DNA from: Paraburkholderia flava
GTDB lineage: Bacteria > Pseudomonadota > Gammaproteobacteria > Burkholderiales > Burkholderiaceae
Assembly: GCF_004359985.1 (NCBI RefSeq)
Contig: NZ_SMRO01000003.1
Span: forward strand, 976,206 to 1,040,205
Length of the DNA: 64,000 nucleotides
Direction: 5' to 3'
The notes under the pieces are model-generated. The model ran no database searches. It was not told the DNA's origin and was given only the letters and a program-made list of their open reading frames with translations. Each line of letters begins with the position of its first letter. Position 1 is the first letter of the stretch. The translations under genes were made by a program, and so were the position numbers. Shown piece by piece: positions 38,197 through 56,245 of this stretch.

Positions 38197-38198
38197 GC

Positions 38199-39283
38199 AT
38201 GGATGAACGCTTGATGAAGAAATGTATCGGCCAACCGGTGCCGGAGTGGGACATGATGCATCGGTTGCCGATAGACCGGCCAGTCGGCCCCGATATGTGG
38301 GACACAGGCACGATCTTCAGGATGAACTCGACGTATATGGACGTGACCGAACCATCGTTTCTGGAAAAGCAGTGGTTTATCACAGGAGTAGTGCTTGCAT
38401 TCGTATTTATGGGAATCGGCCCATACATCTACAATTTTACGCACAGCGGCCCCCCGCGCCGGCCTTCTGGCTGTTTGTTTTCGATTGCCTGGCACTTGCT
38501 GCCGTCGTGCTTTTCGGCGCCATTGTTTGGAGAATGGGTCGTGGGTTCTTTTTCGGCCTACGGCGCAGGCCGATCCGGTTCCACCGTGGCGAGCTCAAGC
38601 TGTACGCGATCCGCTCGCGACGCTTCCTCATGAGGCGCGGCCAAGGTGATGTTGTATGGGAGGCACCATGGACAAAGGACTCAATTTTCTGCCTGCACAA
38701 GGAAGTAACTCAGTTCAATACCGTGTATCACATCCGTCACTACACGGTAAACGAGAGTGGTAACGTGACAAGGGCATTTTCGATAGGCCGGGAGTGGACG
38801 GGATCGCCCGAGGTGGAACTTGTGCTTGTGCAATGGAATTATTGGTGCAAGTACATGAATAGCGGCCCGAACGGGTTGCCGAAACCCATGCTGTTTCATA
38901 CAGAACACGAGACGCCGCGCGAGTCGTTCCTTTTCGCGCTCTACGGGCTGGGCATGCGGGCGTCGCCGTTCTGGCGAATTATCACGATGCCACTTGTCCT
39001 GGTCTTTGCGGCAGGTCGTATCGTAGCTAATGCGAGCTGCCGTGACCCAGAATGGCCAGAATCGATCGAGAAGGTAAGCGAGATTTCGCCGGATGACCCC
39101 TATGCGGAGCCACGAGCGGGCACACCGGTTGGTTGGGCAGAAACGGTTCTGGCACAACAGCGCGGCGAGTATCCGAACGATCCGCAGGGTAAAGTCGATC
39201 ACTGGAGGGGCGAGCAGGATGGGGTAGTCAATGCGCGGCTATGGCTGACGGACCGGCCACCGAAAAATCTGTCCGGTGCCTGA
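38199..39283 (+). pseudogene. DUF6708-like T6SS-associated protein, frameshifted in a C-run
   Basis: From ATG 38199 it reads MDERLMKKCIGQPVPEWD, MWDTGTIFRMNSTYMDVTE and a membrane helix (WFITGVVLAFVFMGIGPYIY). The frame changes in the C6 run at 38449-38454; the continuation has a second helix (AFWLFVFDCLALAAVVLFGA), FHRGELKLYAIRSRRFLMRR and VWEAPW and runs to TGA 39283. Adding one C restores a single ~360-residue protein. Such two-helix proteins accompany BTH_I2691-type effectors, perhaps as immunity or accessory factors. Confidence 0.7.
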
Positions 39284-39295
39284 CAGGAATATTTC

Positions 39296-39559
39296 ATGAA
39301 GGATGAAGCTGAACGCGGCGTAATTCGCTTGAACGACAAGACGACCCACGGCGGTCATGTGACCACCGCGAGCGATGACTTCAAGGTTTTGGGAGTGCCG
39401 GTGGCTCTTGAAGGAGATAAGACCTGGTGCCCCAAATGCCAGGGTACGTTCGCGATCACCCCAAAAGACAGTACCCGCATGCATCACGACAAGGCCGTCG
39501 CCTATGACGGCGACCCCACGGAATGCGGTGCGAAGCTTATCTCCAGTGTCTCCTCCTAA
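39296..39559 (+). CDS. PAAR domain protein
   Basis: 87 residues. VIRLNDKTTHGGHVTTASDD opens a PAAR fold, with two Cys (WCPKCQG) and TRMHHDKAVAYDGDPTECG near the end providing the metal-binding and tip residues. PAAR proteins sharpen the VgrG spike of the type VI secretion system and carry effectors. No VgrG gene is present. It is the only clearly intact T6SS gene of this block. Confidence 0.88.
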   Translation: MKDEAERGVIRLNDKTTHGGHVTTASDDFKVLGVPVALEGDKTWCPKCQGTFAITPKDSTRMHHDKAVAYDGDPTECGAKLISSVSS

Positions 39560-39604
39560 GGCAACGCATAAAGCCTTTCGGCATGGTAGAGCGTAGGAGT
39601 TTTC

Positions 39605-40321
39605 GTGGAAGAATGCCGGCCCGGCACCAACGATTTACCCCTCGCGGACAAGCCTCCGGCGCAGGTCAAAGTGTTCGAAAATAGCGGGCAGAGCCTGCGC
39701 TACCGGGAAGGCAGCTTGATGAAAATTCCCGGCAGTCCGGAGCGCAGCTCTCAGGCGATTTTCAGTGCGGCGCTGTTCGGCTCGCTCGCGTTGGAGGGGC
39801 AACCTGTCCGGTTCTCGGGCATTGTGCCAGGCGTGAGCATGAGAGTCGGCACCGGGAGCCTCAGGCTCGGTGACGACGATGCGGTCATTCACGCCGCTCG
39901 AGGGATATGGCGGGAAGTTCAGCCGAGACTGATCGAATGGCTGACTTCACCTGTTGCGCCCGCTGGGCTAAAAATCGTGCTGGCGCCGGATATCAAAATC
40001 GAGTTTGGCTGGGACGGCAAGTATTTCCTGCGGCCGGGTGTCACACAGATCGATATCGAATATGACGTTGCGTTCGTCGCGTGGTTCACGCGTACCCGCC
40101 ATCCACTGATCGAAGTGCAGCCAAAGCGCAATCCCGAGCGCATGGCACAGATCAACATCGTGCGTAGTCTGGTCGCGACCGCAATACAGAAAACGGTGCA
40201 AGCGAACGATGAACTGTACGCGCGTCTTCCACCGCCAGTGCGATATCGTGCCACAGGCGCCGTCGAAGCTTGGATGCAGGTCAGGCTCGCGGCCGGTGAG
40301 TCCGGCGCCGATTTTACATAG
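39605..40321 (+). CDS. Hypothetical protein beside PAAR
   Basis: 238 residues from GTG 39605, supported by TAGGAG 6 nt upstream. It is soluble, without signal peptide or membrane helix. It has a run of beta-rich segments (LRYREGSLMKIPGSPERSSQ, KIVLAPDIKIEFGWDGKYFL, TQIDIEYDVAFVAWFTRTRH). I do not recognise it. Its place after PAAR suggests an effector, immunity protein or adaptor, which is inference. Confidence 0.55.
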   Translation: MEECRPGTNDLPLADKPPAQVKVFENSGQSLRYREGSLMKIPGSPERSSQAIFSAALFGSLALEGQPVRFSGIVPGVSMRVGTGSLRLGDDDAVIHAARGIWREVQPRLIEWLTSPVAPAGLKIVLAPDIKIEFGWDGKYFLRPGVTQIDIEYDVAFVAWFTRTRHPLIEVQPKRNPERMAQINIVRSLVATAIQKTVQANDELYARLPPPVRYRATGAVEAWMQVRLAAGESGADFT

Positions 40322-40324
40322 CGG

Positions 40325-41210
40325 CTACAGACTGACCGCTTCCTGTCGCTGATAAAACGTTTCCCGCAATTTGTCCACTAATGCGCGGGTCAATCGATGG
40401 GCGACATCGCCGTCGGCGAACGGGACGCCAATCGCAGTCTTCTCTGGCAGACGTTCAACGTACGGGAAGGCGCGCTGTATGAACCCACCGCTGCGCTACA
40501 CCGGCTGCTCGACGCTGCCTATATCGCCGACGATGTACCCGTCGGCCTGATCCGCCTGCCGGCTGACGCCGTGTGCATCGTGCCCGACCCGTCGTGGTGG
40601 GGGCGCCAGGGCGGTATAGAGGCCGTCACACTGTTCTACCCCCCCGAAGCCTGACGACAACCCTACGCCGGCCCTGTTGAGCTGCGTGACGTGGGCACAT
40701 CTGCCGGGCCCGGACCGGCACATCCAGATGGATGTTCTGCAAATTGACGCTGGTGATCCGGACATGACGATCAGGCAGGCACTGGCCGACGCAATGTCGG
40801 CGTCGCTTGAATTTGACGATGCCGAGACTGCAACCGCCGTGCTCAGGCATGGGGGCAGCGTACTCGATTATGTTATCAAGATGCTGTTCTACCTGACGGC
40901 GCGAGACGCGCACGTTGTACACGACCGGGCATATAGCAATGCACCACGCAATTTCAGTGGCCTAGGCAAACGCAAACGTGCCGAACGCCTCGCACAGATC
41001 GAGCTGTTATACGATCGGCACATTGTGGGGCGGGCCATTCTGGATGTGGAGCCGAGCGCGTCGCTGCCGGCGGACGGCAGCCAACACGAAGTTCGTGAGC
41101 ACTGGCGGCGACCGCATTTCAGGATGCAGCCCTATGGACCGAGTTCGTCGTTGCGCAAACTCGCGTTCATTGGACCAACGCTTGTACGGCCCGACCGGTT
41201 CGGACTCTAG
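40325..41210 (+). pseudogene. Accessory-island hypothetical protein, broken by a stop and a C-run frameshift
   Basis: A frame open from ~40325 reads TDRFLSLIKRFPQFVH before an in-frame TAA at 40379-40381, then SMGDIAVGERDANRSLLWQ, RLLDAAYIADDVPVGLIRLP and PSWWGRQGG. At the C7 run (40639-40645) the frame changes to PDDNPTPALLSCVTWAHLPG, later HWRRPHFRMQPYGPSSSLRK and FIGPTLVRPDRF. The last motif recurs in plasmid and island proteins of unknown function in this group. With six Cs the two halves fuse. Confidence 0.7.
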
Positions 41211-41296
41211 CGATAAGGCTGCGGGTTGCATGGGCCTGCTCAAGGATTTCCCCTCTCAGCTGCGCATAGCGGGCGCCTCCCATGCCGCCGGTCGGA

Positions 41297-42050
41297 TCAC
41301 ATGCGGGTCGGTACCACCTCTTCTCCGAGCCATGCGTTGAGTTCCGAGAAGCGAGCCTGTAACGGCTCAATTTCATTTCGGCCAGAACACACTGGCCGCC
41401 GTGTCAGCCGCACCGAACCCGCCCGTATTGCCCGGCACGATGCTGAGCAGTTGCTGCGACACGCGGTGTGCGGCGAGCAGATCGTCACGCGTCACATTCT
41501 TGATATTGAAGAACTCGTCCATCACAACGACGTCCGACACGGGTATGAGCTGGATACCGTCCTGCTCTCAGTCACGCGGCGTGCAGCGAACTCAGGTGCT
41601 CGGGCTGGCCGCACACCTCCTGGTTGATATCCGGGCGCATCAGATGAAAAACCGATCGCTGCGCGAATTCATGTGACTCCAGCCAGCCACCGCCAGCGAA
41701 CACATAGCCGCTGAAGTCCGCCTTGCGCCGCACGTATTTCGAAGAGCCGGCACGAGCTGCAGGGTTCCACCGAGCGGGTTTTGCCGCTGCTCCAGATAAC
41801 CGTTGCCGAAGGTCAGAAAATCCAGTGCGAAACGCCCGAACGCGTGACGCGAAAACCACCTGTGCGGGGTGAACGTTGATGCCAGTACGTTGACCTTGAA
41901 GAACAGTGCTGAGCCATGGTGCGTGCCAACGCAAAACGATTTCGCGGGTCCCGCCCAGCTCATCGGTGGCTCGAACCATTTGCCGTTCGACCAGCATTTG
42001 GTGTAGTCGAGAGTGTCAGCACGCTCCATGACCTGTACTGACTCGTAGAA
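41297..42050 (-). pseudogene. P2-type phage portal protein (GpQ-like), multiply frameshifted
   Basis: Reading leftwards: ERADTLDYTKCWSNGKWFEP, then HHGSALFFKVNVLASTFTPH, FSRHAFGRFALDFLTFGNGY and LEQRQNPLGGTL. After a shift near 41755 comes YVRRKADFSGYVFAGGGWLE and VFHLMRPDINQEVCG. Another shift follows at ~41575, then VTRDDLLAAHRV-type and NEIEPLQARFSELNAWLGEE. These are the successive conserved blocks of P2-family portal proteins. The segment encoding the middle helices is deleted and no other capsid genes accompany it. Confidence 0.8.
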
Positions 42051-42138
42051 CGAGCACTTCTTCGGGCGTATCGCGTCATCTGACGTGACGGACCGACTAT
42101 CGTGCGACCTGAGCGGTTGGGCTACAAATGTAGTCCGT

Positions 42139-42827
42139 ATGTGGTCGCCACGAGCCTTCAGCGGTAAAGCTGCTTTTCCATATCATGATGGACTACTACG
42201 TTTCGTATTTGTGCCGTGAGACTGGAACGGACGCGCCACAGATGCGGAGATCGAATCGCTGCCGTGTCCGTCGCCCGATGATTGTGCGTTCGGTCAAAAA
42301 GGGTAACTGCAAGCCGTATGGCCGGCTGAACGTTGTGGTCGGTGATGAAGACGAATTGGGTTCGCTCATCTTCCGCACGACCTCGTTCAACTCGATCCGC
42401 ACGCTTGCTGCGAGGCTGCGGTACTTCAGTGCAGTTTCGGGCGGGCTGCTGGAAACGATGCCGCTGGAACTGAAGCTGAGAGGAAAGTCTACGACGCAGA
42501 GCTACCGAGCCGCCATCTACTACGTCGATCTCGTTGTGCAGTCCGGGCTGACACTGGAAGAGGCGATTGGTCGGGCAACGGAATTGGACAGTCAGCGCAG
42601 GGCTGCGGGTTTCGATCAGGTGGCACTCGATTACGCAGCTAGGGTCGGGTTCGGCAATGGCGCTTTTGAAGAATCCGGGGGAGGATGTTTCGGTGGTTGC
42701 CGAGGAGTTCTATCCCGAGGAGGATGAGGAAGACAGGAGCGACACTTCCGGAAGTGTGAGTGGCTCACCAACGCTCAGGGAAAAACTTGGCTGGAAGGTT
42801 GCAAACGCAATGGGAGATGCATCGTGA
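42139..42827 (+). pseudogene. Recombination-directionality-factor-like (phage/ICE 'hydrolase or metal-binding') protein, frameshifted
   Basis: One frame gives MWSPRAFSGKAAFPYHDGLL, an in-frame stop at ~42217, then EIESLPCPSPDDCAFGQKG. A shift in the A/G run at 42296-42303 leads to NCKPYGRLNVVVGDEDELGS, TTSFNSIRTLAARLRYFSAV and RAAIYYVDLVVQSGLTLEEA. A further shift in a G-run at ~42674 leads to EDVSVVAEEFYPEEDEEDRS and KVANAMGDAS. The ordering matches proteins of integrating elements often labelled hydrolase or metal-binding protein. Confidence 0.65.
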
Positions 42828-43506: not shown

Positions 43507-44304
43507 TTGGCATTCAATCGATATGGACTTTGTTATCAAGTGCGGCAAAGATTTAATGATGATCGGCTATTGAAGTGGGTATTATTCGGGTTGGCTATGC
43601 TTATGAAAGTCGGGGGTTTCTTGGAAAACATCGAAAAAAATAATCTAAGTATTAAAGATGTTATTTCTATTTTTTTGAAGATGGCAATAATATATTTATT
43701 TTTCGTCACCGCTACGAACTTCTCGGACGCATTGGCGGAGACAAATCCAGGTAGCCAGCCAGCGATTACTACCTCATCGGAAAGTATAAATGATGTACTT
43801 GTGGGAATTCATGAGGTGGCTCAACACGGGAATTTAATGGATATTCTTTTCTTTGAAAAGAAAATGCATATAAAAATGAATCAACTTCCCGATAAATATG
43901 CTCTATTTGGCTTCGAAATATGCGGAATTCCAGAGGATCCTGCTCTCAACGAAAATTCTCCGGCGAAATTGAGACGGTACCAATATGTCGAGGTGCCATG
44001 GTCTCTAAAAGAACCAATTGAGCACCCGAATTTCTGTTCGGCTGACTATATTGAACGCCTGGACAACCGAAACAAGATTTCGAAAAGTATGGTCAAATTG
44101 GAATTTGATATAAACCGATCTTGCACTTCAGAAGAAATGTTTTTGGAGAACTTTAAAGATGCAAGACGAGATTCTCGATCTACTGAGAATGCAATTGCAT
44201 ATTATTACAATGGCAATAACGGCTTAAGAATTAATTTTCTGTTTTATCGAAAAAAAACTTCCCCAGCATGTATCGAGGCGGCTGTATTAACACAAACATT
44301 CTGA
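43507..44304 (+). CDS. Membrane-anchored/exported hypothetical protein preceding the secreted protease
   Basis: 265 residues from TTG 43507, which has GGGAAG upstream; ATG 43597 is an alternative. A hydrophobic segment (ISIFLKMAIIYLFFVTATNF) near residues 55-75 could be a signal anchor ending at DALAE. The remainder is polar with four cysteines (EICGIPED, NFCSADY, RSCTSEE, SPACIEA) suited to two disulfides. The codon use is AT-rich, unlike the surrounding genome. It ends 10 bp before the large protease gene, so it is probably its operon partner, such as a maturation or inhibitor protein. No family was recognised. Confidence 0.6.
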   Translation: MAFNRYGLCYQVRQRFNDDRLLKWVLFGLAMLMKVGGFLENIEKNNLSIKDVISIFLKMAIIYLFFVTATNFSDALAETNPGSQPAITTSSESINDVLVGIHEVAQHGNLMDILFFEKKMHIKMNQLPDKYALFGFEICGIPEDPALNENSPAKLRRYQYVEVPWSLKEPIEHPNFCSADYIERLDNRNKISKSMVKLEFDINRSCTSEEMFLENFKDARRDSRSTENAIAYYYNGNNGLRINFLFYRKKTSPACIEAAVLTQTF

Positions 44305-44314
44305 TGAGGGACAC

Positions 44315-47300
44315 ATGACTCAAGATAATCTCAATAATGCGATCACCGCGACGTCGGCAATATGGGGGGGCAAACCTCCTTCTCAGGATGTACTCACGCA
44401 AATCAACAACAGTTCGCTCTTGGTCCAATCAATTAATCAATACGATAATGCCATACAGGATGGAACAGCTGCTCCAATAGGAACATATTTTCCTCAAGAT
44501 GGAAGCGCTTATAGTAATGGAAAGGAAACTATTGTTAATGATAATAATCAAGTGCAAATTTTATTGGGAACAATAATTACTAGTTCAACCGATACGGGTG
44601 TTTATATTTCTGCATTGACTTATGAGATGGGAAAATTTTCTTATTTCAACCAAGGTCAGGAATTATACAATGCCGTTGCGAATCTGAATCCGAATGATCC
44701 CAATTATGGGAATGCTGCAGCAGTAGTAGGAACTACTACGGAGGCTTGGTCGGCCGCCTTCAGCTACCAAGTTCAACAGCAGATGGCTTCCGCTCCAGGG
44801 GGAGCGACGTTTACAATTGATGGAGACGAGCCAGGGCACGCTAATGGCGCTATCGAGCAGACGCTCAACAATGCTTGGCAAGGGCAGAATCTGTCGAACG
44901 CTTCGTCTGCGGATGCCTTTGCGGCTTTGACCACCGCCGCATTGAACGTAATCGGGACATTCCCGGCCATTGGCTCCAATACCTACCCTGAAATTTATCA
45001 GAACAATGCTGTTGCACTCCAAGACGAGTACGGCAGAGCAGGTCTAAATGGCGTCACAACGAATCCACCTGCAGACATCACCGGTATTGTCGTCAATGAT
45101 TCGAATGGCAATCTGAGCTCATCAACGTTGACCTTCCAATCGGGTGAGCACGAAACATTAGCGTTTACCGGTAATCAGGTAAGTTCAGCAACTTATACCG
45201 ATGCATCGGGAAATATTATATCTAATATCTCCTACGTCCACAATGCGGATGGGAGTTATACCTCAACGGTAAAGGACACAACTGGTGCCGTCGTGTCCAC
45301 GCAGCAGTTTTCCAGCAATGGCTCGGAAGTCGATACGGTAACAAACGTCAACACCGCTGCCGATGTCAATGCCAGCGGGGTGACGCTGACCACCAACGCC
45401 AATACCATCGACGTGAATGGGCCAGACTACGACACGACGATTCTTAATGGCGGTCATGTTATCAACGCTCAAGCCGGTGACACGTTTCAACTGACCGGCG
45501 TTGGCTACAACGTGAATTTGTCGGCGACGGGTCCAGCATCGACAATCACGTTTAATGAAAGTACGAGTGCATCAATTGGCTCGGTCAATGGATCAGGCGC
45601 AACGATCAATGTTAACGACTCCAACGACGTGTTTACTCCAATCGACTGGAGTTCTCCCAAGCTTACCTCTCTGGAAAATGCAATCTCAGGAGGCAACAGC
45701 GCAAAGCTCCAAGAATTTGAGCAGTATGCGGATAATTCTCCAGAATATACAAAGGAACTCGACGAGATCGTAGATGGCCAACCTGCCACATTGGGTGCCC
45801 CGACCACGTGGGATACCGATTCAATTGATGTAAATGGATCGAACGACTCAATTTTGAACGCCACTGGGGGTACAACGACCATCACAGGAGATGGCGATAC
45901 ACTAACCTCTTATGGGTTCGGTGGCACGGTTAATGTTTCTGGGCAAGGTGATACGTTTGATGGTTCTAATGTGACCATTAACAGTCAAGACGGCACCTCG
46001 CTTACGGTGGATGGATCGGCCAATTCGGTTAGCGGCGGATCTGATAGCACGATCGATATAGAAGGGTCTGGCGATACCCTGACATCTGTAGGGGGTGGGA
46101 GCACCGTTGATGTTTCTGGTTTTAGTCAAACAGTCGATGCTTCAAGCGCTACAATTAATGGGGAAGGTCAGTTCGCAATTAACGGATCAAGTGATTCTAT
46201 TGACCTGGATGCTCCCGGTGATACTGCAACTGTTAATGGAAGCAGTGACACGATAAATTCTAGTATCCAGGGAAGTGATTTCACAGTTTCTGGTCAAGAT
46301 GACATTCTTAATGTGTCAGGCGGATCAATTGATGACGCAAATGCATCCTCAATTTTGACCGATACGCTCTCTGTTAATGGGTCCGGTGACACTATCTCGG
46401 ATAGAGGAGATGATATTCTGGATGTCAGCGGTGGAAGTAACGTATTAGAGACCGACGCAGGAAGTACAATCGATATTTCTGGTGAAAATAATTCTATCTA
46501 CTCGTCAAGTACCACCGTAGAGGGTCAGAACAGTGACTCATTATATATAACCGGTTCCAGCAATATAGTTTCTGATGGCCAGGGCAGTACAACTACAATA
46601 GACGGTAATGATAATACACTGTCTTCCATTGGCGCTAGCAGTATTGTTGATAACACTGGCCAAAATAACACCATAGACCTTGATGGCAGCAGTTCGACCA
46701 CGAATTTTTCAGCGGGATCCAGTGGGACAGTTGATGGAGCGGGAGACACCGTTAACGGTCAAGGTAGTGATTCACTCACGATCAACGGATCGGGCGATAC
46801 GATTACCGACGGGGCTAGCAGTACGACCAATATTGATGGTAACGACGATACATTGTCGGACGTCGGTGCGGGGAGCACCGTTGGGGTATCTGGGCAGAAT
46901 TACACTGTCGATCTGATTTCAGATAGCAACTCTCTGGTGAATTTGGCAGCAGACTCCAGCGGTACCGTCAACGGGTCAGGAAATACCGTCGATTTAACCG
47001 GCAACGGCATTACCGTCAATGCAAGTGATGACACATTCACTCACGCCGCCGGCATTTCAGGAGATATTGTTGACGGAAGCAACGATTCGGGTGTTATGGG
47101 TGTCTCCGGGTTGGATTACATCGATTCCGATAGCGGCAACCCCACTGGTGGTGGAGATGACGGCGGTGGAGATGACGGCGGTGGAGATGACGGTGGTGGA
47201 GATGACGGCGGCGGAGATGACGGCGGGGGAGATGGCAGTGGTGGCTACTATGGGGGGTATGGATTCTCCGGAAACCGGAATGCGGTCCAGAAGGAGCTGT

Positions 47301-48085
47301 CGGGCGGCAGTATCAGCGGAATCGCGCAATACGATCTGAATCAGGGGAACGACCAGGCAGCTATGGCCGCGCAAGGTGGATTCCGGCAGGCAGCAGAAAT
47401 GGCAAGGGACACCGCTACTTCGGCGGGTACAGGGCCGAATGTACTTGAAGGTGCACGCTGGAGTGCAGACACGATCACGTGGAGTCTCTCCAGTCTGTCA
47501 GGCATCGATGGCGCGTCGTTCAGCGGCCAGATGAGCAGTCAGTACGAAACGGATGTCGAGAATGCATTTGCAACGTGGGCGGCTGCATCCGGCCTCAAGT
47601 TCCAGGAGGTCTCGGACGCTTCGCAGGCTGACATCAACATTGGATGGGGCAATCTGAATACGGCGACGACCGGAGAGGTGGGTTACACCGGCTATCGTGC
47701 TGCTGGCGGAGTGATGTCGTCTGCCGCGATCGAATTGGAGAATCCGACCCAGGATGCGCTGGCAAGCGGAGCGGACGGCGCGCTGACCTATTCGACCGGC
47801 GCCACGCTTTCGCAGGTGCTGCTGCATGAGATCGGCCATGCGTTGGGGCTTGCCGACAATGCCGACCAGGGCTCCGTGATGAACTATGACCTCACGTCAA
47901 CCAACCAGACACTGGACAGCACGGATATCAATGCAATCCAGACACTTTATGGTTCTTCGGCGCAAACGGCGGCGTTGATCCAGGCCATGGCGGGCCAAGC
48001 TCCTTCGTCCTCTGCAAGTAGTACCTCAAACCTTCCGGCAGAACAGGCATCACAGCATGTTCAGTTGGTCGCCGGAACACACTAG
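44315..48085 (+). CDS. Large beta-repeat secreted metalloprotease (metzincin domain), likely type I secretion cargo
   Basis: 1256 residues with no Sec signal. Residues ~1-260 are a helical N-terminal domain. Residues ~360-940 are an irregular parallel-beta repeat built on patterns such as VNGSGDTI, DGNDNTLSS and GSTVDVSG. Residues 945-974 are six GGGDD-type repeats, then YYGGYGF at 978-984. The C-terminal domain (ARWSADTITWSLSS, ENAFATWAAASGLKFQEV, ADINIGWG) is matrixin-like with HEIGHALGLAD at 1171-1181 and the Met-turn SVMNYD (Met1189). The third zinc ligand is Asp1181 instead of the His of serralysins. The 5' two thirds have AT-rich codons, the protease part GC-rich codons. T1SS genes follow. 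Confidence 0.85.
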   Translation: MTQDNLNNAITATSAIWGGKPPSQDVLTQINNSSLLVQSINQYDNAIQDGTAAPIGTYFPQDGSAYSNGKETIVNDNNQVQILLGTIITSSTDTGVYISALTYEMGKFSYFNQGQELYNAVANLNPNDPNYGNAAAVVGTTTEAWSAAFSYQVQQQMASAPGGATFTIDGDEPGHANGAIEQTLNNAWQGQNLSNASSADAFAALTTAALNVIGTFPAIGSNTYPEIYQNNAVALQDEYGRAGLNGVTTNPPADITGIVVNDSNGNLSSSTLTFQSGEHETLAFTGNQVSSATYTDASGNIISNISYVHNADGSYTSTVKDTTGAVVSTQQFSSNGSEVDTVTNVNTAADVNASGVTLTTNANTIDVNGPDYDTTILNGGHVINAQAGDTFQLTGVGYNVNLSATGPASTITFNESTSASIGSVNGSGATINVNDSNDVFTPIDWSSPKLTSLENAISGGNSAKLQEFEQYADNSPEYTKELDEIVDGQPATLGAPTTWDTDSIDVNGSNDSILNATGGTTTITGDGDTLTSYGFGGTVNVSGQGDTFDGSNVTINSQDGTSLTVDGSANSVSGGSDSTIDIEGSGDTLTSVGGGSTVDVSGFSQTVDASSATINGEGQFAINGSSDSIDLDAPGDTATVNGSSDTINSSIQGSDFTVSGQDDILNVSGGSIDDANASSILTDTLSVNGSGDTISDRGDDILDVSGGSNVLETDAGSTIDISGENNSIYSSSTTVEGQNSDSLYITGSSNIVSDGQGSTTTIDGNDNTLSSIGASSIVDNTGQNNTIDLDGSSSTTNFSAGSSGTVDGAGDTVNGQGSDSLTINGSGDTITDGASSTTNIDGNDDTLSDVGAGSTVGVSGQNYTVDLISDSNSLVNLAADSSGTVNGSGNTVDLTGNGITVNASDDTFTHAAGISGDIVDGSNDSGVMGVSGLDYIDSDSGNPTGGGDDGGGDDGGGDDGGGDDGGGDDGGGDGSGGYYGGYGFSGNRNAVQKELSGGSISGIAQYDLNQGNDQAAMAAQGGFRQAAEMARDTATSAGTGPNVLEGARWSADTITWSLSSLSGIDGASFSGQMSSQYETDVENAFATWAAASGLKFQEVSDASQADINIGWGNLNTATTGEVGYTGYRAAGGVMSSAAIELENPTQDALASGADGALTYSTGATLSQVLLHEIGHALGLADNADQGSVMNYDLTSTNQTLDSTDINAIQTLYGSSAQTAALIQAMAGQAPSSSASSTSNLPAEQASQHVQLVAGTH
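47147..47236 (+). repeat. Six 15-bp tandem repeats encoding GGGDD
   Basis: The unit GGTGGTGGAGATGAC is repeated six times in frame with third-position variation; the last unit ends GATGGC. It encodes an acidic, glycine-rich linker between the beta-repeat region and the protease domain. It could change copy number by slippage. Confidence 0.92.
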
Positions 48086-48100
48086 CTGAAGGTTCGGCCA

Positions 48101-48146
48101 CCTCACTCCGCAGGCGATGACGCTCTGTCGCCTGCGGAACGTGAGG
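48101..48146 (+). terminator. Strong hairpin between protease and sulfotransferase genes
   Basis: CCGCAGGCGA (48108-48117) pairs with TCGCCTGCGG (48128-48137), extended by CCTCAC/GTGAGG (48101-48106/48141-48146). No long T-run follows; it may be a partial terminator or mRNA stabiliser that lets the cargo gene be expressed more than the export genes. Confidence 0.7.
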
Positions 48147-48172
48147 CTTAAAGTTTAAATACAAGAGATTCA

Positions 48173-48988
48173 ATGATCACGCGACTGCACTTAATTTCCG
48201 GGTTGCCCCGTTCCGGGTCGACGTTGCTCTGCGCATTACTTCGTCAGAACCCCCGTTTTTCCGCTGCGATGACCAGCCCTGTGGCCCTGCTGTGCGGGAC
48301 CGTCCATGGAAAGATGTGTGGTGGAGAGTTCAGCACGTTCTTTGACGACGGCAAGCGCACGAATATTTTGCGAGGAATATTCGACTCTTACTATCCCGGT
48401 GTTGGTGCCGATCAAGTCATCTTTGATACCAATCGAACATGGACTGGTCGAGCGTCGTTGCTCGCCGCTTTGTATCCTCAGGCACGTATTATCTGCTGCG
48501 TCAGGGAGGTTGGCTGGATTATCGATAGCGTGGAAACCATGTTGGCAAAAAACCCACTCCAGCTATCGAGAATGTTCAACTTCCAGCCCGGCAGCTCCGT
48601 GTACGCACGTGCAGAATCGTTGATGGAGACAGAGCGTGGTCTGATTGGACATCCGTGGAGTACGCTCCGTGAGGCTTGGTTTGGGGTCGAGGCAAAACGC
48701 CTCATCCTGATTTCCTACGATCGCTTGGTTCGTGAACCCGAGAACATCTTGAGGTCCCTCTATCATGAAATCGATGAGGCTTGGTTCGAGCACGATTTTG
48801 AGAATGTGGTGTACGACGAGCCCGACTACGATGCTCACCTCGGCATGCCCGGTTTGCACAAGGTAAGAAGCAAGGTCGAGTACCAATCTAGAAAGCCCTG
48901 CATTCCGCCTGACCTCTTCGCGAAATACGCTGGAACCAACTTCTGGGATAAACCAGAACTCAATACGCGGAAGGTAAAGTTACTTTGA
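48173..48988 (+). CDS. Sulfotransferase family protein (PAPS-dependent), T1SS-linked
   Basis: 271 residues from ATG 48173. The 5'-phosphosulfate loop is clear at residues 9-19 (SGLPRSGSTLL), and a 3'-phosphate-binding region follows (VIFDTNRTWTG, then IICCVREVGWI and LILISYDRLVREPENILRSL). It sits between the large secreted protein and a full set of T1SS genes on the same strand. RaxST of Xanthomonas is a tyrosylprotein sulfotransferase encoded beside T1SS genes raxA/raxB. A role in sulfating the exported protein is therefore plausible, but the acceptor is not proven by sequence. Confidence 0.87.
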   Translation: MITRLHLISGLPRSGSTLLCALLRQNPRFSAAMTSPVALLCGTVHGKMCGGEFSTFFDDGKRTNILRGIFDSYYPGVGADQVIFDTNRTWTGRASLLAALYPQARIICCVREVGWIIDSVETMLAKNPLQLSRMFNFQPGSSVYARAESLMETERGLIGHPWSTLREAWFGVEAKRLILISYDRLVREPENILRSLYHEIDEAWFEHDFENVVYDEPDYDAHLGMPGLHKVRSKVEYQSRKPCIPPDLFAKYAGTNFWDKPELNTRKVKLL

Positions 48989-49037
48989 ACTACGACATGG
49001 GCGATCAGCCCACTGGGCTTCGATAGAGGTACAGCAA

Positions 49038-51176
49038 GTGAACGCCCCCGAGAAGAACGAAGAATTTGTGCAAACGCCGGTCGATCCCGCATTGGCCTGT
49101 CTCGTCGTCATCGCAAGGTTCCACGGTATCGCTACCGACGCTGCACAGCTACGTCACGCTGCAGCGCGTGGGGGGCAGCCCTTCGATGCTGACGCACTGG
49201 TCCTGTGCGCCCGCTCGATTGGTTTGAAGGCCCGTCTCGTTCCCTTGCGGACAGATCGGCTTGATCGCTCGCCACTACCAGTGCTCTGCCTAGACAAGGC
49301 CGGGAACCATTTCATCATTGCACGCCGGGAGGGCGAATCTGTCCTGTCCTTCGAAGCCGGTTCGACTAAACCCACGCTGGTGCCGATAGAGGAGATTACC
49401 CGTCGCTCCACCGGGTACATGATCGTGTTCGCTTCCCGTGCATCTCTCACGGGAGAGTTGGCAAAATTCGATTTCTCATGGTTCATTCCTGCGGTCGTCA
49501 AGTACCGGCGACTGTTGCTGGAAGTCCTGACAATCTCGTTTGTCCTGCAGATCTTCGGACTGGTGACCCCGCTCATGTTCCAGGTGGTCATGGACAAGGT
49601 GCTGGTCAACCGGACCTACAACACGCTCGCTGTGGTTGGCATCACGCTGTTTCTCAGCTCAACCTTTGAGGTGACACTCACTGCGCTACGAAACTACATC
49701 TTCTCGCACACGACGAACCGGATCGACGTTGAGCTTGGCGCACGACTCTTTAAACATCTGATCGCCCTGCCGTTGCCTTATTTCGGAGTGCGGCGTGTGG
49801 GCGACACGATCGCACGGGTACGGGAACTCGAGAGCATCCGGAATTTCCTGACAGGCCAGGCACTGACAGCGGTCATCGATCTGTTCTTCTCGATCGTATT
49901 CATCGCGGTCATGTGTTTCTACAGTGTCTGGCTGACGATCGTGGTTGTGCTTTCGCTTCCGCTCTACGCAGGTGTCTCGGCTGCCCTCATCCCGGCTTTG
50001 CGCTACCGGCTCAACGAAAAATTTTCACGTGGTGCTGACAATCAATCGTTTCTCGTCGAGACGGTGTCCGGTGTGGAAACGGTGAAGTCGATGTCGGTCG
50101 AGCCGCAGTTCACTAAAAAATGGGAAATGCAACTGGCGGCATACGTTGCGTCGGGTTTTCGTGTCACTCAACTCGGTAACGTCGGTCAGCAACTGATCCA
50201 GTACATCGGCAAGCTCGTTTCACTCGGCACGCTCCTGCTCGGTGCCAAACTTGTGATCGACGGCAAGCTGACGATTGGCGAGTTGATTGCGTTCAACATG
50301 ATGTCGCAGCGCGTTGCAGCGCCGGTCCTACGACTCGCCCAGCTCTGGCAGGATTTCCAGCAGGTAGGCATCTCGATGAGCCGGCTGGGCGACATCCTGA
50401 ATACACGAACCGAACTGCGTCAGAGCAGCCAGCCAATGCCTGCCATCAAGGGGGAAGTTCAGTTCGAGCACGTGCGTTTCAGATACCGCCCGGATGGACA
50501 GCCCATCCTTGATGACGTGTCGCTCGATATCCGTGCTGGTCAGGTGATCGGCATCGTCGGCCGGTCTGGATCCGGCAAGAGCACGCTTACCAAGCTCCTG
50601 CAACGTCTTTACGTTCCCGAGCACGGCGCGGTACGCATCGACGGGGTGGACCTGGCGCTAGCTGATCCATCCTGGCTCAGACGGCACATCGGCGTCGTGC
50701 TTCAAGAGAACTATCTGTTCAACCGGTCGGTCCGTGAGAATATTGCGCTCGCCGATCCCGGGGCGCCGATGGCGGCCGTCGTACACGCCGCAAAACTGGC
50801 GGGTGCACACGATTTCATCAGCGAGCTTCCGCAAGCCTACGACACTGCCATAGAAGAGCACGGCGGAAATCTATCTGGGGGACAACGCCAGCGTATCGCC
50901 ATTGCACGTGCGCTATTGACCAATCCCCGTATCCTCATTTTCGATGAGGCGACCAGTGCTCTCGATTTTGAAACCGAACGTGTGATACAGAACAATATGA
51001 AGTCGATCTGCGCCGGCCGCACGGTGATCATCATCGCCCATCGGCTCAGTACCGTGCGCCACGCGAATCAGATCCTTGCGATGGACAAAGGACACATCAT
51101 CGAACGCGGCACGCACGAAACGTTGCTGGCGGCTGGCGGCTACTACGCACATCTTCTTTCCTTGCAGAACGGGTGA
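49038..51176 (+). CDS. Type I secretion ABC transporter (HlyB-type) with degenerate C39 domain
   Basis: 712 residues from GTG 49038. Residues ~15-135 form a C39-like domain in which the catalytic cysteine context is lost (DPALACLVV rather than DCG...), so it should bind rather than cleave cargo. A six-helix membrane domain (FVLQIFGLVTPLMFQVVMDK onwards) follows. The ATPase has Walker A GRSGSGKST near residue 508, LSGGQRQRIAIAR near 613 and ILIFDEATSALD near 632. This is the inner-membrane motor of a T1SS with HlyD and TolC partners encoded next. Confidence 0.95.
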   Translation: MNAPEKNEEFVQTPVDPALACLVVIARFHGIATDAAQLRHAAARGGQPFDADALVLCARSIGLKARLVPLRTDRLDRSPLPVLCLDKAGNHFIIARREGESVLSFEAGSTKPTLVPIEEITRRSTGYMIVFASRASLTGELAKFDFSWFIPAVVKYRRLLLEVLTISFVLQIFGLVTPLMFQVVMDKVLVNRTYNTLAVVGITLFLSSTFEVTLTALRNYIFSHTTNRIDVELGARLFKHLIALPLPYFGVRRVGDTIARVRELESIRNFLTGQALTAVIDLFFSIVFIAVMCFYSVWLTIVVVLSLPLYAGVSAALIPALRYRLNEKFSRGADNQSFLVETVSGVETVKSMSVEPQFTKKWEMQLAAYVASGFRVTQLGNVGQQLIQYIGKLVSLGTLLLGAKLVIDGKLTIGELIAFNMMSQRVAAPVLRLAQLWQDFQQVGISMSRLGDILNTRTELRQSSQPMPAIKGEVQFEHVRFRYRPDGQPILDDVSLDIRAGQVIGIVGRSGSGKSTLTKLLQRLYVPEHGAVRIDGVDLALADPSWLRRHIGVVLQENYLFNRSVRENIALADPGAPMAAVVHAAKLAGAHDFISELPQAYDTAIEEHGGNLSGGQRQRIAIARALLTNPRILIFDEATSALDFETERVIQNNMKSICAGRTVIIIAHRLSTVRHANQILAMDKGHIIERGTHETLLAAGGYYAHLLSLQNG

Positions 51177-51181
51177 TATCG

Positions 51182-52600
51182 ATGTTGCTTCGCCTGCACG
51201 TATTACTCGATCTGCTGCGCCGGTACCGAACCGTCTGGAGTGCAGCATGGAACATTCGCCGTCAACTGGATGGTCCCGCCAGGCTTGAATATGAACTTGC
51301 CTTTCAGCCGGCGCATCTTGAGCTGGTCGAAACGCCGGTGCATCCCGCTCCCCGGTGGACGGCTCGACTGATCATTTTGCTGGTTGCGCTGGCTATTCTG
51401 GTTGCCTGCGTTGCCAGACTCGATATCGTCGCATCGGCGAAAGGAAAACTCGTTCCCGATGCCAGAGTGAAAGTTGTTCAACCCGCAATGACAGGCGTCG
51501 TTCGGGAGATCGCTGTTCAGGATGGTCAACGGGTAAAGGCAGGCGATCTCCTGGTGAGACTCGACACCACCCAGGCTGCAGCAGACGAGGATAAAGCCAG
51601 ATCGTCCAGACTGGATGCGGCATTTGCCGCCGCCCGGTCGCAGGCGCTGCTGACCGCCTTGCAGGCGGGTCGGGAACCGGAAGTCGTCAGAGTTGATGGC
51701 GCGTCCCCTGGGCGCCAGGAAGAGGCGCAACACCTCGTTGACGGAATGTATCGTGAATACGAGGACAAGTTGAATTCCGCAAGGGACGAACTCGCAAAGC
51801 GGGAAGCAGAGCTCGACAGTACACGGCAGGAGATCGCCAAGCTTGCCGCAACGGCTCCCCTCGCCCGTAGCCAGGCCAATGACTACAAGGCGCTGGCCGC
51901 CGACAAATACGTGGCGAAGAATGACTACATCGACAAGGAACAGACGGCGTTGGAGCAAGAGCATGAACTCGATGCCCAGCGTAGCCACGCCCATGAACTG
52001 TCGGCGGGGATAGCGGAGCAACAGGCAGACATTGCGCAGACCATCTCGCAGTTTCGCCGGGAACAGCTCGATGCGCTGGAGAAGGCAAATGAGCAGCTCA
52101 CCCAGAGCAGCAACGACGAAACCAAGGCTCATACCCGAAGAGAATTGCTCAGTCTGACCGCGCCGGTTAGCGGCACGATCCAGCAGCTCGCCACACATAC
52201 GCTCGGTGGTGTCGTAACGACTGCGCAGGCACTGATGGAGATCGTGCCGGACGACGCACTGGAGGTTGAGGCGACTGTCGAGAACAAGGATGTGGGTTTC
52301 CTGAAGATCGGCCAGCGTGCAGCGGTCAAACTTGATGCTTTTCCCTATAGCCGATACGGAATGCTTGAAGGAACGGTTGTTGATCTATCCAACGATGCTG
52401 TACAGGACAGGAAGCTCGGCCTCGCTTTCACTGTTCGCATTCGACTGACATCCAACCGGATGTGGATCGATAACCGGTGGATATCGCTTACGCCGGGTAT
52501 GACCGTGAAGGCGGAGATCAAGACTGGTAGACAAACGGTTGCACAGTATCTGTTAGGCCCACTAGTTGAAGGCGCTCAGGAGAGCATGCGTGAGCGCTAG
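51182..52600 (+). CDS. HlyD family type I secretion membrane-fusion protein
   Basis: 472 residues from ATG 51182, with GGGTGA in front; GTG 51173, overlapping the HlyB stop, is the other option. One transmembrane helix (RLIILLVALAILVACVARLD) is followed by the lipoyl half-motif (VQPAMTGVVREIAVQDGQRV), long coiled coils (residues ~140-320) and the second lipoyl and beta-barrel region (LTAPVSGTIQQLA, EATVENKDVGFLKIGQ). It bridges the ABC motor and the TolC channel. Confidence 0.94.
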   Translation: MLLRLHVLLDLLRRYRTVWSAAWNIRRQLDGPARLEYELAFQPAHLELVETPVHPAPRWTARLIILLVALAILVACVARLDIVASAKGKLVPDARVKVVQPAMTGVVREIAVQDGQRVKAGDLLVRLDTTQAAADEDKARSSRLDAAFAAARSQALLTALQAGREPEVVRVDGASPGRQEEAQHLVDGMYREYEDKLNSARDELAKREAELDSTRQEIAKLAATAPLARSQANDYKALAADKYVAKNDYIDKEQTALEQEHELDAQRSHAHELSAGIAEQQADIAQTISQFRREQLDALEKANEQLTQSSNDETKAHTRRELLSLTAPVSGTIQQLATHTLGGVVTTAQALMEIVPDDALEVEATVENKDVGFLKIGQRAAVKLDAFPYSRYGMLEGTVVDLSNDAVQDRKLGLAFTVRIRLTSNRMWIDNRWISLTPGMTVKAEIKTGRQTVAQYLLGPLVEGAQESMRER

Positions 52601-54044
52601 AGTTTTGTATTGGTTACCCGTGCTTGCAATCGGTGTGGTGTCGACATGTTCGACGCTCGCATATGGCTTCGATCCATTGCGCGCTGAACAGACGATCTCG
52701 CCGAATGCTGCTGCTGGCCTCGTCACGACAGTTGATCCATGTGAATCCGGTCCTCTCAGCGAGCCGCTGACATTGGACGATGCGGTTGCGCGTGCGTTGT
52801 GCCGTAACCCGAAAACCCGTGAAGCATGGGCTGACGTCAAGGCTCAGGCGGCTGCGGTTGGCGTGGCACGAGCATCGTACCTGCCGACTATCACTGGAAA
52901 CTGGCAGGGCGTTCGGGACAATTCCGTCACGGATATTACGGGGCATCCCGAGCTGAGTTCGAACTACGCTGCGACGGTGCGTTCGGAAGGCGTGTCGCTC
53001 AACTGGCTTCTGTACGATTTCGGAGGGCGGGAGGCGGCACTCAGGAATGCATCATCGCTACTGGAGGCGGCGCAGGCTACGCAAAATGCGACATTACAGG
53101 CGACGTTCGCCACGGTTGCCAAAGATTATTACTCGGCCCAGGCGGCTCGTGCGGCGCTGGATGCGGCTCGGGACATCGAGGAGATGACAAGGCAAAGTGC
53201 CACGGTAGCGCAGGCCAGGGTCGACAGGGGGGCTGCCCCCGTCACCGATGCGTTGCAGGCACAGAGCCAGCATGAACAGGCGATACTGAGTCTCGCCAAG
53301 GCCCGGAGTGACGCCCAGTCGTCGATCGGTGCGGTGGCGGTAGACATGGGCTACGACCCCACCGTTATTACCGAAGTGCCTGCTGTGACGGATACTGTGA
53401 TTCCGGGCAGGATTTTTACGCAAGCTCTTGCACAGTTGATCGAAGAGGTGAAGCGGACTCACCCCAGCGTCGTAGCCGCAGAAGCGCAATATGATGCTGC
53501 CGTAGCGAAAGCTGCTCAGGTACGTGCGCAGGGGTTGCCAAGTATCAGTCTCACGGGGAAATACAGCCGGGACAACCAGCCTCAAAGCCTGGGGCTCGGA
53601 CTTCCAACCTTTCCGTCCAGCGGTCACGACGCCTATATCGGCATTCAGGTTTCCATTCCGATCTTCGAAGGATTCGGACGAAACTATCAGATTGATCAGG
53701 CACAGGCCGAAGCAGAACGGCAACTGGATACGCTCGAAGAAACCCGGCTCAAGGTCGCACTGGACGTCTGGGATAGCTATCATGCCCTGGAAGCCGCGTC
53801 GGAAAGCTCAGCTCACAGCAGCGCTCTGCTGGATATCTCCCAGCAGGCCTATATCGCAGCCGAACACCGTTATAGCGTTGGCGTCGGTAACATCCTCGAA
53901 CTGCTTAATACGCAGACGACTCTCGCCAATGCGAAGGAACGCCGGATTCAGACGTTGACCGAATGGGACAATGCCCGGATTGATCTCGCGTCGAAGCTGG
54001 GACGCCTCGATCTATCGTTCACTGCAACGGCAGGAACAAATTGA
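52590..54044 (+). CDS. TolC family outer-membrane channel protein
   Basis: 484 residues from GTG 52590, which has AGGAG upstream and overlaps the HlyD end by 11 bp. A signal peptide (VLYWLPVLAIGVVSTCSTLA) precedes the TolC repeats: LTLDDAVARALCRNPKTREA, SLNWLLYDFGGREAALRNAS in repeat one, and SIPIFEGFGRNYQIDQAQAE in repeat two. It is the outer-membrane duct for the T1SS. HlyB, HlyD and TolC are thus all encoded together, which favours a dedicated system. Confidence 0.94.
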   Translation: MSARVLYWLPVLAIGVVSTCSTLAYGFDPLRAEQTISPNAAAGLVTTVDPCESGPLSEPLTLDDAVARALCRNPKTREAWADVKAQAAAVGVARASYLPTITGNWQGVRDNSVTDITGHPELSSNYAATVRSEGVSLNWLLYDFGGREAALRNASSLLEAAQATQNATLQATFATVAKDYYSAQAARAALDAARDIEEMTRQSATVAQARVDRGAAPVTDALQAQSQHEQAILSLAKARSDAQSSIGAVAVDMGYDPTVITEVPAVTDTVIPGRIFTQALAQLIEEVKRTHPSVVAAEAQYDAAVAKAAQVRAQGLPSISLTGKYSRDNQPQSLGLGLPTFPSSGHDAYIGIQVSIPIFEGFGRNYQIDQAQAEAERQLDTLEETRLKVALDVWDSYHALEAASESSAHSSALLDISQQAYIAAEHRYSVGVGNILELLNTQTTLANAKERRIQTLTEWDNARIDLASKLGRLDLSFTATAGTN

Positions 54045-54160
54045 ATGACTCTCTGGAAATCATGTCTGGCCTCTCCGCATGTTTCTTTTGCCGAGCATGT
54101 TGCAGTCGAAGCTAGCAATCTCGATATGCGCTACACAACTATATTTTGTACTCCATAAGT

Positions 54161-54911
54161 ATGATCATGAAATACTCTAGGGCTGCAATCTTGATTGCCG
54201 TTGGTATAACGACAGGTTCTGCCTTTGCAGAGGACAGACCCATTGCGGCCTCAACAGCATCGGCCCAGCCTGCTTCCATGTCTGGTCAAACAGACAGGGG
54301 AATGGCTCAAGGAGGGATCGCAACTGGCTAAAGCAGGGAATCACGAAGAGGCGGTAGCCTACTTCGACAGGATCATCGATGCATATGGGAAGCAATATGA
54401 TGACAAGGGTACAAGATACTACAGTGCCCATTGGCAGATTGAGAGCTTGATGTATCTCGTTTCGTCTGCCAATGCGCATGTCAAAGCCGTGGTTGCGCCA
54501 GGAACATGGGCTTATGCCTGGTACCTGAAATCCTACGCATTGACCGGACTTGGGCGGCAGGCGGACGCGAAAGCAGCGATTCAACGGGCGGTGGACCTGT
54601 CACCTCGCAACGCGCAGTTTCTTGAAGAATGGGGAACGCTGCTCGAACTGGAAAAGAACTGGCCGCAGGCGATGAAAACATTTCAGGACGCCAAGGATGA
54701 TGCCCGTCAGTTTTCGCCGCCAGATGTCAAGAACGCAGAGCTGGGGCGGGCATGGCGAGGTCAGGCGTATGTCGATGTCGAACTGAACAGGCTGGACGAG
54801 GCAGAGGCGCTGTACCAACAATGTCTGCAACTCGATCCTCACGACGCGCGTGCTGCCGCCGAGCTTCAGGGGCTACGCCGACAACGTGCGGCAACAGGCA
54901 GTAGTCAATAG
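54161..54911 (+). pseudogene. Periplasmic tetratricopeptide-repeat protein, frameshifted after the signal peptide
   Basis: Frame one has the start MIMKYSRAAILIAVGITTGS and AFAED, a Sec signal, and ends at TAG/TAA 54331. The TPR body lies in another frame: TGEWLKEGSQLAKAGNHEEA, WYLKSYALTGLGRQADAKAA, EWGTLLELEKNWPQAMKTFQ and ELNRLDEAEALYQQCLQLDP, ending at 54911. The frame changes at ~54287-54300. Without the shift it would be a ~245-residue exported TPR protein of the T1SS locus. Either a recent mutation or a base error is possible; a start inside the TPR frame (54225) would give an unexported form. Confidence 0.65.
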
Positions 54912-55093
54912 AAATGAAAAGATCGCACTCACCCCGATGCTGCGAGGAACACACGTTGACGGCAATAACGGGTCTGCAGTTGCGTTGCAATACAGGCGCT
55001 CATGGCATCTGTGATCGGCGCCGGCTGGAGGAGCGAAGATGGCGGTCGATCCGGATACAACCCGTCTCGATCCCTGGGCGCGTTCGCCTCGGA

Positions 55094-56245
55094 ATGGCGA
55101 AACGACTGGAATTCCTGCGGGACGTTTCCCTGGCGGGCATCATGTGGATTTGCTGTTCACCTTTCGCCAGTGCGCAGATGGTCGAAACGCATCCCGATCC
55201 CTCATGCCAGCTAACAAAGAATGCGCAGGTCCAGATGACCGTGCGCAGCGGGCACTACGTCATTCCGGTCGAGATCGGTGGCCATGTGTATCCGATGGTA
55301 CTCGGTATCGGTTCCGACAGAACCGCTTTCACGCCCGAAGCGATCCAGACGCTCGGGCTGGCCGAGGATAGCCGGCGTGCCAGCGTCGTCGCAGGGCTCG
55401 GGACGGGCTCCACCTCTGAATACCCCCGTATTCTTCCTTCCCTCAGGTTTGGCGGTTCGGAGTGGGTCGATCTGCCTGTACTTCCCATGCAATCGATACC
55501 GGATGGTCCACCGGGTGCGGGTGAGCGACCAGTTGGGCTGCTCGGAGCTGACGTCCTGTCCCGTTTTGATCTGGATGTCGATTTCGTCAACAGGTCGATG
55601 AGCCTGTATACGGCTCAGGGATGCGTCGGACAGTTTTTACCCTGGCAGGGCCGGTACTTTGAATACGCGACCCGACCGGTGCCTGGCTCCAGGCACCGGT
55701 TTGTCATTCCAGTGCAACTGAATGGCGTGTCGCTCAATGCGTTGCTGAGCACCGGCACGGCGCGGTCGGCACTGAAACGCGAGGATCAGCCGAATGTGGG
55801 TGGCGTGAGCACCGGTTCGCCAAACAAAAACATCCCCAACGGAGCCTCCGGTTACGCAGGTTCTGGTGCGGTAGTGGATCGATACCGTTTTGAGAGCTTC
55901 CGGATTGGCCCGGCTACGTACCACAACGTTTTACTAAGGGTCAGCGATACCGTTCCCGAAGGCGAGGACATTGCTCTGGGTCTGGACTTCATGCACTCCC
56001 GACGGATCTGGTTTCCCCGATCGTCGGAGCAGGTGTTCATGCAGCCGTCGACTGATCGTCGCGATGTTCCGATACCTTCCGAAATCATTCAGCCAGGAAC
56101 GTCTGGATCGATCCCGGACGGGGATGACCCCGAAAGCCTTGATGCAATGATACGGAGTCGCCCCGAACTGTCGACCCATAGCCACATGACCTATTATCCG
56201 AATGTTCGGGTGATACAGCGGGCACGGTTGCAGCCGCCTCCCTGA
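55094..56245 (+). CDS. Retropepsin-like (aspartyl protease fold) exported protein with altered catalytic sites
   Basis: 383 residues from ATG 55094, chosen because a signal peptide follows (MAKRLEFLRDVSLAGIMWIC to FASAQ). Two pepsin-like half domains are visible: VIPVEIGGHVYPMVLGIGSD with GLLGADVLSRFDLDVDF, and VIPVQLNGVSLNALLSTGTA with IALGLDFMHSRRIWF. At the two positions where aspartyl proteases have D-T/S-G, this protein reads GIG and STG, so both catalytic Asp are missing. It may be a binding protein or inhibitor rather than a protease. The upstream frame to 54914 has no coding features. Confidence 0.75.
   Translation: MAKRLEFLRDVSLAGIMWICCSPFASAQMVETHPDPSCQLTKNAQVQMTVRSGHYVIPVEIGGHVYPMVLGIGSDRTAFTPEAIQTLGLAEDSRRASVVAGLGTGSTSEYPRILPSLRFGGSEWVDLPVLPMQSIPDGPPGAGERPVGLLGADVLSRFDLDVDFVNRSMSLYTAQGCVGQFLPWQGRYFEYATRPVPGSRHRFVIPVQLNGVSLNALLSTGTARSALKREDQPNVGGVSTGSPNKNIPNGASGYAGSGAVVDRYRFESFRIGPATYHNVLLRVSDTVPEGEDIALGLDFMHSRRIWFPRSSEQVFMQPSTDRRDVPIPSEIIQPGTSGSIPDGDDPESLDAMIRSRPELSTHSHMTYYPNVRVIQRARLQPPP

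What the first reader, a model, noticed from the sequence alone, without database searches (positions are those of the whole stretch)
43507..56245. Sulfotransferase-coupled type I secretion locus with a giant metalloprotease cargo
One strand encodes an exported partner protein, a 1256-residue beta-repeat metzincin, a PAPS-type sulfotransferase (GLPRSGSTLL loop), and a complete HlyB/HlyD/TolC set. In Xanthomonas the raxST-raxA-raxB genes combine a tyrosylprotein sulfotransferase with a T1SS that exports a small sulfated peptide. Here the natural cargo is a large protease, so the locus may sulfate a secreted enzyme or adhesin before export. Gene order and motifs are seen; cargo and acceptor are inferred.
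Basis: partly seen in the sequence, partly recalled or inferred. Interest (0 to 1): 0.8.

Follow-up and report, generated by a model that had tools for sequence, protein, structure and literature searches.

The report
Sulfotransferase–metalloprotease type I secretion operon
A soil-type bacterium carries a gene set that exports a giant protease and probably decorates it with sulfate first, using an enzyme shaped like the one that sulfates tyrosines on animal proteins; relatives of this enzyme sit beside giant secreted proteins in other bacteria.

The parts
43597..44304 (+). possible exported partner protein (ATG start; TTG start at 43507)
   Evidence: ORF; no family match; by phmmer a homologue only in genome G027, next to the ST (L004 232 bits; L115 231 bits), no other match among the loci of those two calls
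44315..48085 (+). type I secretion cargo: beta-repeat protein with C-terminal M10 metzincin
   Evidence: relatives
47147..47245 (+). Gly/Asp (GGGDD)n tract of the cargo linker, residues 945-977
   Evidence: residues 956-977 have pLDDT under 50 in the model
47246..47266 (+). candidate acceptor tyrosines Y978, Y979, Y982 (YYGGYGF)
   Evidence: state across ST+ and ST- relatives
47456..47953 (+). M10 catalytic domain, HEIGHALGLAD motif from 47825
48173..48988 (+). TPST-like sulfotransferase (5'-PSB loop GLPRSGSTLL from residue 10; 3'-PB with R111 and S119)
49038..51176 (+). HlyB-type ABC exporter with degenerate C39-like domain (Pro17 at the catalytic Cys position)
51173..52600 (+). HlyD-type periplasmic adaptor
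52566..54044 (+). TolC-type outer membrane protein
54225..54911 (+). TPR protein, role unknown
   Evidence: no phmmer match in the loci, though an annotated TPR gene follows tolC in the ST- locus L101
54914..56245 (+). clan AA (retropepsin-like) aspartic protease, role unknown
   Evidence: a relative only in L011 (158 bits)

Best explanation
The operon is a sulfation-plus-secretion unit. The sulfotransferase, which I take to be cytoplasmic (its fold begins at residue 5, leaving no room for a signal peptide), takes sulfate from PAPS and places it on tyrosines of the Gly/Asp-rich linker just before the M10 protease region (YYGGYGF, residues 978-984). The modified, still unfolded chain is then exported in one step by HlyB-HlyD-TolC through its C-terminal signal, without cleavage of an N-terminal leader. 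Outside the cell the sulfotyrosine tract probably acts as an acidic docking or adhesion patch, or tunes the helical pro-region next to it. Shown: gene content, predicted fold, co-conservation, operonic APS kinase in relatives, covariation of tyrosine and ST in a small sample. Inferred: substrate, site, timing, and what the sulfate does.
Against: No sulfation was measured. One ST- cargo (L099, G640) keeps a Tyr-rich acidic linker although no close ST was found in its genome; a distant sulfotransferase-family protein exists there (83.6 bits to PF13469), and also in G014 and G526, none in G052 and G842. L102 (G970) is Tyr-rich, its contig ends at the cargo, and its genome shows one PF13469 match, in a 680-aa frame. 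L092 and L094 lack the tyrosine at the conserved place but have a YGL further upstream in the linker. Of 12 cargos whose longest contig has the same length as that of an ST, 8 have the motif; three others (P0129, P0184, P0207) are Tyr-rich without it and P0178 is Tyr-poor near the pro-region. L019/L005 has two STs but few linker tyrosines. Seven of 30 close STs have no metzincin in the stretch held, four of them no T1SS either (L021, L026, L027, L033). The TPST Glu-Glu position has no Glu in the profile alignment. ST- cargos number only five. No PAPS gene was found in the window, and the own genome could not be searched for one. In the clade-B giants 19 of 29 have no tyrosine in a strongly acidic setting.
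Confidence: 0.6

Rival explanations
1. The ST sulfates the cargo, but at other sites or residues (beta-repeat Ser/Thr or Tyr, or a glycan on the cargo); the Tyr-rich linker is only a flexible spacer.
For: The paralogous STs sit by giant adhesins and autotransporters, of which 19 of 29 examined lack a strongly acidic tyrosine; 18 of the 29 have Gly-rich domains of at least 24 Gly in 60 residues, often with tyrosines, 11 do not. The tyrosine motif is not universal.
Confidence: 0.22
2. The ST makes a sulfated small molecule, lipid or surface glycan used together with the protease; the two share an operon but not a substrate.
For: Many bacterial sulfotransferases act on small molecules or glycans (recalled); some close STs stand near phospholipase C-like genes or without cargo or T1SS (L021, L026, L027, L033).
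Against: No recurrent biosynthetic genes were noticed beside the ST; the recurrent neighbours are giant exported proteins and APS kinase. TPST-like fold.
Confidence: 0.13
3. The gene neighbourhood is fortuitous or inherited by recent transfer, without functional coupling.
For: Patchy distribution: cargo in 6 of 144 genomes of the genus, ST in 6 of 98 relatives, one of them distant at 51 bits, both counts with the own genome, so the unit probably moves as a block.
Against: The same cargo-ST pair occurs where the cargo end is only 40-58% identical to the window's and in distant taxa.
Confidence: 0.05

Closest known systems
raxX-raxSTAB of Xanthomonas (RaxST, RaxB, RaxA; passages of PMC6637879, and PMC8872720)
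   Same: Sulfotransferase encoded with an ABC exporter and adaptor; sulfation precedes leader removal and export; the paper gives RaxST essential Arg-11 and Ser-118, and here R13 and S119 have nearly the same spacing.
   Different: Cargo is a 1256-residue metalloprotease, not a 60-residue GG-leader peptide; the exporter C39-like domain lacks its catalytic Cys; a tolC gene is in the operon; APS kinase in some operons. The paper reports the complete cluster only in Xanthomonas and says that raxST homologues elsewhere mostly lack raxA/raxB. No RaxST sequence was compared.
Animal tyrosylprotein sulfotransferases TPST1/TPST2
   Same: Best fold match and best profile match; PAPS loops conserved.
   Different: 14-18% identity in the structural alignments; cytoplasmic rather than Golgi (inferred); catalytic base not assigned.
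HlyB-HlyD-TolC type I secretion with protease cargo (serralysin type, recalled)
   Same: Complete exporter, protease cargo, recurrent C-terminal tail such as LLAxxH.
   Different: No RTX repeats detected in the cargo; matrixin-type M10 with Asp as third zinc ligand; sulfotransferase in the operon.

Membership tests
rax (raxX-raxSTAB) system | sulfotransferase next to an ABC exporter and adaptor | tested here: met
rax (raxX-raxSTAB) system | active C39 peptidase that removes a GG leader | tested here: not met
   Pro17 at the position of the catalytic Cys (which column is catalytic is recalled); HlyB subfamily 996 bits against 382 for the peptide-cleaving exporters
rax (raxX-raxSTAB) system | small RaxX-like precursor peptide | not tested
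   no systematic search for short GG-leader ORFs was made
rax (raxX-raxSTAB) system | sulfotransferase orthologous to RaxST | not testable with these tools
   no RaxST sequence was at hand
tyrosylprotein sulfotransferase | TPST-like fold with 5'-PSB and 3'-PB loops | tested here: met
tyrosylprotein sulfotransferase | catalytic glutamate | tested here: inconclusive
   the profile alignment puts no Glu at the TPST GEET stretch (its catalytic role is recalled); E52 is nearly invariant
tyrosylprotein sulfotransferase | transfer of sulfate to protein tyrosine | not testable with these tools
   needs assay or mass spectrometry
type I secretion system | HlyB, HlyD and outer membrane channel | tested here: met
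   HlyB and HlyD over NCBIfam cut-offs, TolC over the Pfam OEP cut-off but under the NCBIfam TolC cut-off
RTX protein | GGxGxDxUx calcium-binding repeats | tested here: not met
   no HemolysinCabind match in the cargo at E up to 0.01
Peptidase M10 metzincin | HExxHxxGxx zinc motif with Met-turn | tested here: met
   M10 68.1 bits; HEIGH, G and Met invariant in alignment A3; third ligand is D in 97 of 120 cargos, not the classical H

The most novel reading that the evidence does not exclude
Bacteria possess a widespread protein-tyrosine sulfation pathway: a family of cytoplasmic TPST-like enzymes, often with an APS kinase gene nearby, that modifies giant exported proteins of unrelated kinds (type I metzincins, DUF4347 adhesins, type V autotransporters) before secretion.
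Probability: 0.4. Interest if true: 0.9.

Novelty: new variant of a known kind. Interest (0 to 1): 0.74.

Why it matters
In the papers I saw, bacterial tyrosine sulfation by a bacterial enzyme means RaxX (passages of PMC6637879 and PMC8872720; not an exhaustive search). If this reading is right, the modification is used on whole secreted enzymes, and perhaps adhesins, in many lineages, with sulfate-activation genes at hand; and a natural set of relatives with and without ST, with and without the tyrosine, makes the function directly testable. It would also give a bacterial relative of TPST for biotechnology.

Tried and rejected
Linkage by chance: rejected on conservation. Linkage of the metzincin to sulfotransferases in general: the paralog group lacks it (0 of 50). 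Acidic tyrosines as the common acceptor of all groups: not supported in the clade-B giants (19 of 29 without); the weaker idea of Tyr in Gly-rich domains fits 18 of 29 (the 29 were 28 frames that I picked by hand and the own-genome autotransporter). Even sampling found few cargos: 1 of 369 in the class, 5 of 398 in the phylum (three of them at about 55 bits are probably other M10 proteins and were not counted). My first motif count (24 of 25 and 1 of 5) was replaced by 25 of 27 and 1 of 5 after adding L017 and L025 and scoring L022's first cargo and L038 as lacking it. Before the counts, 20 near-identical cargo rows and all rows under 100 bits (such as truncated ones) were dropped; L102 was set aside as unknown. 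Paper searches for a published link (nine searches): none listed in 51, 72, 98, 99; in the others no title or abstract start described this operon. Papers: passages of PMC6637879 and PMC8872720 seen; all others as search listing only.
Full report
What is there. The + strand from about 43597 to 56245 carries a small possible exported protein, a 1256-residue protein with an M10 (matrixin) metalloprotease domain near its C-terminal end, a 271-residue sulfotransferase, a HlyB-type exporter, HlyD, a TolC-type channel, a TPR protein and a retropepsin-like protease. The genome (G000, 6.97 Mb) is of the same genus as G015, whose contig of 23964 bases with a 90% identical ST matches a Paraburkholderia bannensis NBRC 103871 record in length and match position; so it is a Paraburkholderia by inference.

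The exporter. HlyB scores 996 bits against the NCBIfam HlyB model (cut-off 725.55) and aligns over nearly its whole length to solved E. coli HlyB. Its N-terminal C39-like domain has Pro17 where bacteriocin exporters have the catalytic Cys (the role of that column is recalled). It should therefore not cut a leader; export through a C-terminal signal is expected. Many cargo tails end in LLAxxH or the like. No RTX repeats were detected.

Conservation of the unit. Of the 30 loci with ST scores of 300 bits or more, 20 have the M10 cargo by search, two more by eye (L017, L025) and one has a truncated cargo tail (L009): 23 of 30. HlyB at 400 bits or more is in 17 of 30; L028, L029 and L030 have T1SS genes but no metzincin seen; L021, L026, L027 and L033 have neither. 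Stretches are at most about 21 kb and often cut by contig ends. In the 50 remaining loci there is no M10 cargo and no such HlyB. On the tree the close STs are not one clade: the Rhodanobacteraceae-type rows (with one Eremiobacteraeota bin) stand apart, one long-branched paralog row (L055) falls inside, and the root is not supported. The cargo is patchy: 6 of 144 genomes of the genus, 8 of 398 of the family, each count with the own genome; 1 of 65 and 3 of 58 in two other genera of the family.

PAPS supply. In Bradyrhizobium L029 the order is hlyB-hlyD-ST-cysD-cysNC. In L026 the kinase is divergent and adjacent; in L024 and L030 it is 3-8 kb off. In the paralog group it adjoins the ST in L045, L055, L063 and L084 and follows the giant adhesin in L070, L074, L081, L083 and L086 (one Pseudomonas lineage). 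In all, 15 of 80 loci (6 of 30 and 9 of 50) in 1.37 Mb, where 0.2-0.7 copies would be expected at an assumed 1-3 per 6 Mb; related loci are not independent. The five ST- loci have none, which with five says little. This is my best evidence that these STs are PAPS enzymes in use. The window has no such gene; the own genome was not searched for one.

The candidate acceptor. Just before the M10 region the cargos have a low-complexity linker, mostly Gly/Asp-rich, that ends in a short conserved segment: here SGGYYGGYGFSGN, in others YGYYGFAG or YDNYDYYGYYGFAG. The model leaves the linker without structure (pLDDT under 50 for residues 956-977), then shows a short strand, helices and the catalytic domain. 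Acidic residues near tyrosine are typical of tyrosine sulfation sites (recalled). Five cargo-bearing genomes have no close ST (G014, G052, G526, G640, G842; G526 has only a 62-bit distant one; other PF13469 proteins are present in G014, G526 and G640). In four of them hlyB directly follows the cargo. At the conserved place these read LLGFAG, EYAGLAG (twice) and SAFGFSG; G640 reads FYGLAG and is Tyr-rich. L092 and L094 do have a YGL further upstream. Tyrosine at the conserved place: 25 of 27 ST+ against 1 of 5 ST-, p 0.002 (read by eye); plain Tyr counts, 25 against 5 cargos, five choices of stretch, p 0.014 to 0.065. The window cargo and the ST- cargo of G842 are sister branches (support 100/100): one has ST and YYGGYGF, the other neither. 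The ST- state needs four changes on the tree, at least three by well supported branches. Relatedness is not otherwise corrected for, and five is few. Against: L099, L102 (unresolved), L019/L005, L022's first cargo, L038, P0178, and in all 4 of 12 contig-length-matched cargos without the motif.

The wider family. Of the 50 paralog loci, 34 have a frame of 900 residues or more within 2.5 kb of the ST (some long frames in GC-rich DNA are not genes). Seven giant neighbours, one of them from the own genome, were scanned with Pfam: three DUF4347 proteins (L041, L046, L072), three with ESPR and PATR matches of type V autotransporters (L040, L047, where ESPR is below its cut-off but the beta-domain is clear, and own genome L123) and one without a clear call (L076); L060 resembles autotransporters by NCBIfam, below cut-off for the equivalogs. 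So this genome has a second, 47% identical ST next to a 1782-residue autotransporter-like frame. Eighteen of 29 giants have a very Gly-rich domain. What recurs is a giant exported protein.

Mechanism. I commit to cytoplasmic, PAPS-dependent sulfation of linker tyrosines followed by one-step export. Shown: genes, predicted fold, conservation, APS kinase linkage, covariation in a small sample. Inferred: acceptor, order of events, effect. The likely effect is an extracellular acidic docking patch on the protease; control of the pro-region is possible.

Known or new. Two papers were seen in passages. PMC6637879 reports the complete rax cluster only in Xanthomonas and raxST homologues elsewhere mostly without raxA/raxB; PMC8872720 describes RaxX as a sulfated peptide exported by a peptidase-containing transporter. 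Nine paper searches listed no paper whose title or abstract start describes a sulfotransferase with a T1SS metzincin or DUF4347 adhesin. I rate it a new variant of a known kind: it works like rax but fails the rax test of an active leader peptidase.

Noticed in passing
L123:2591-7936 (-) and 8151-8963 (-); G000:C1: A second TPST-like sulfotransferase in the same genome (47% identical) lies beside a 1782-residue frame with ESPR and PATR matches of type V autotransporters.
   Followed up: partly
L072:10826-18217, L041, L046 and similar loci: Paralogous sulfotransferases stand directly before giant DUF4347 proteins, often a few bases away, in several cases with an APS kinase before or beyond.
   Followed up: partly
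window 47825-47860 and relatives: The third zinc-ligand position of the cargo metzincin is Asp in 97 of 120 proteins, but Glu 8, Ser 8, Tyr 3, Cys 1, Ala 1 and no motif in 2, so some family members may be altered in activity.
   Followed up: no
window 54225-56245: A TPR protein and a clan-AA aspartic protease follow tolC; by phmmer they are not part of the conserved unit, though an annotated TPR gene also follows tolC in L101.
   Followed up: partly
window 36327-42727: Genes resembling phage or mobile proteins (weak MUG113/T5orf172, DUF6708, Gp3-like recombination directionality factor) lie upstream of the operon, which fits its patchy spread.
   Followed up: no
L006, L021: In some Paraburkholderia a close sulfotransferase stands next to phospholipase C-like and sedolisin-like genes instead of a T1SS (read by eye).
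   Followed up: no
L018, L020, L022, L034: Several loci carry two or three metzincin cargos or fragments around one sulfotransferase.
   Followed up: no
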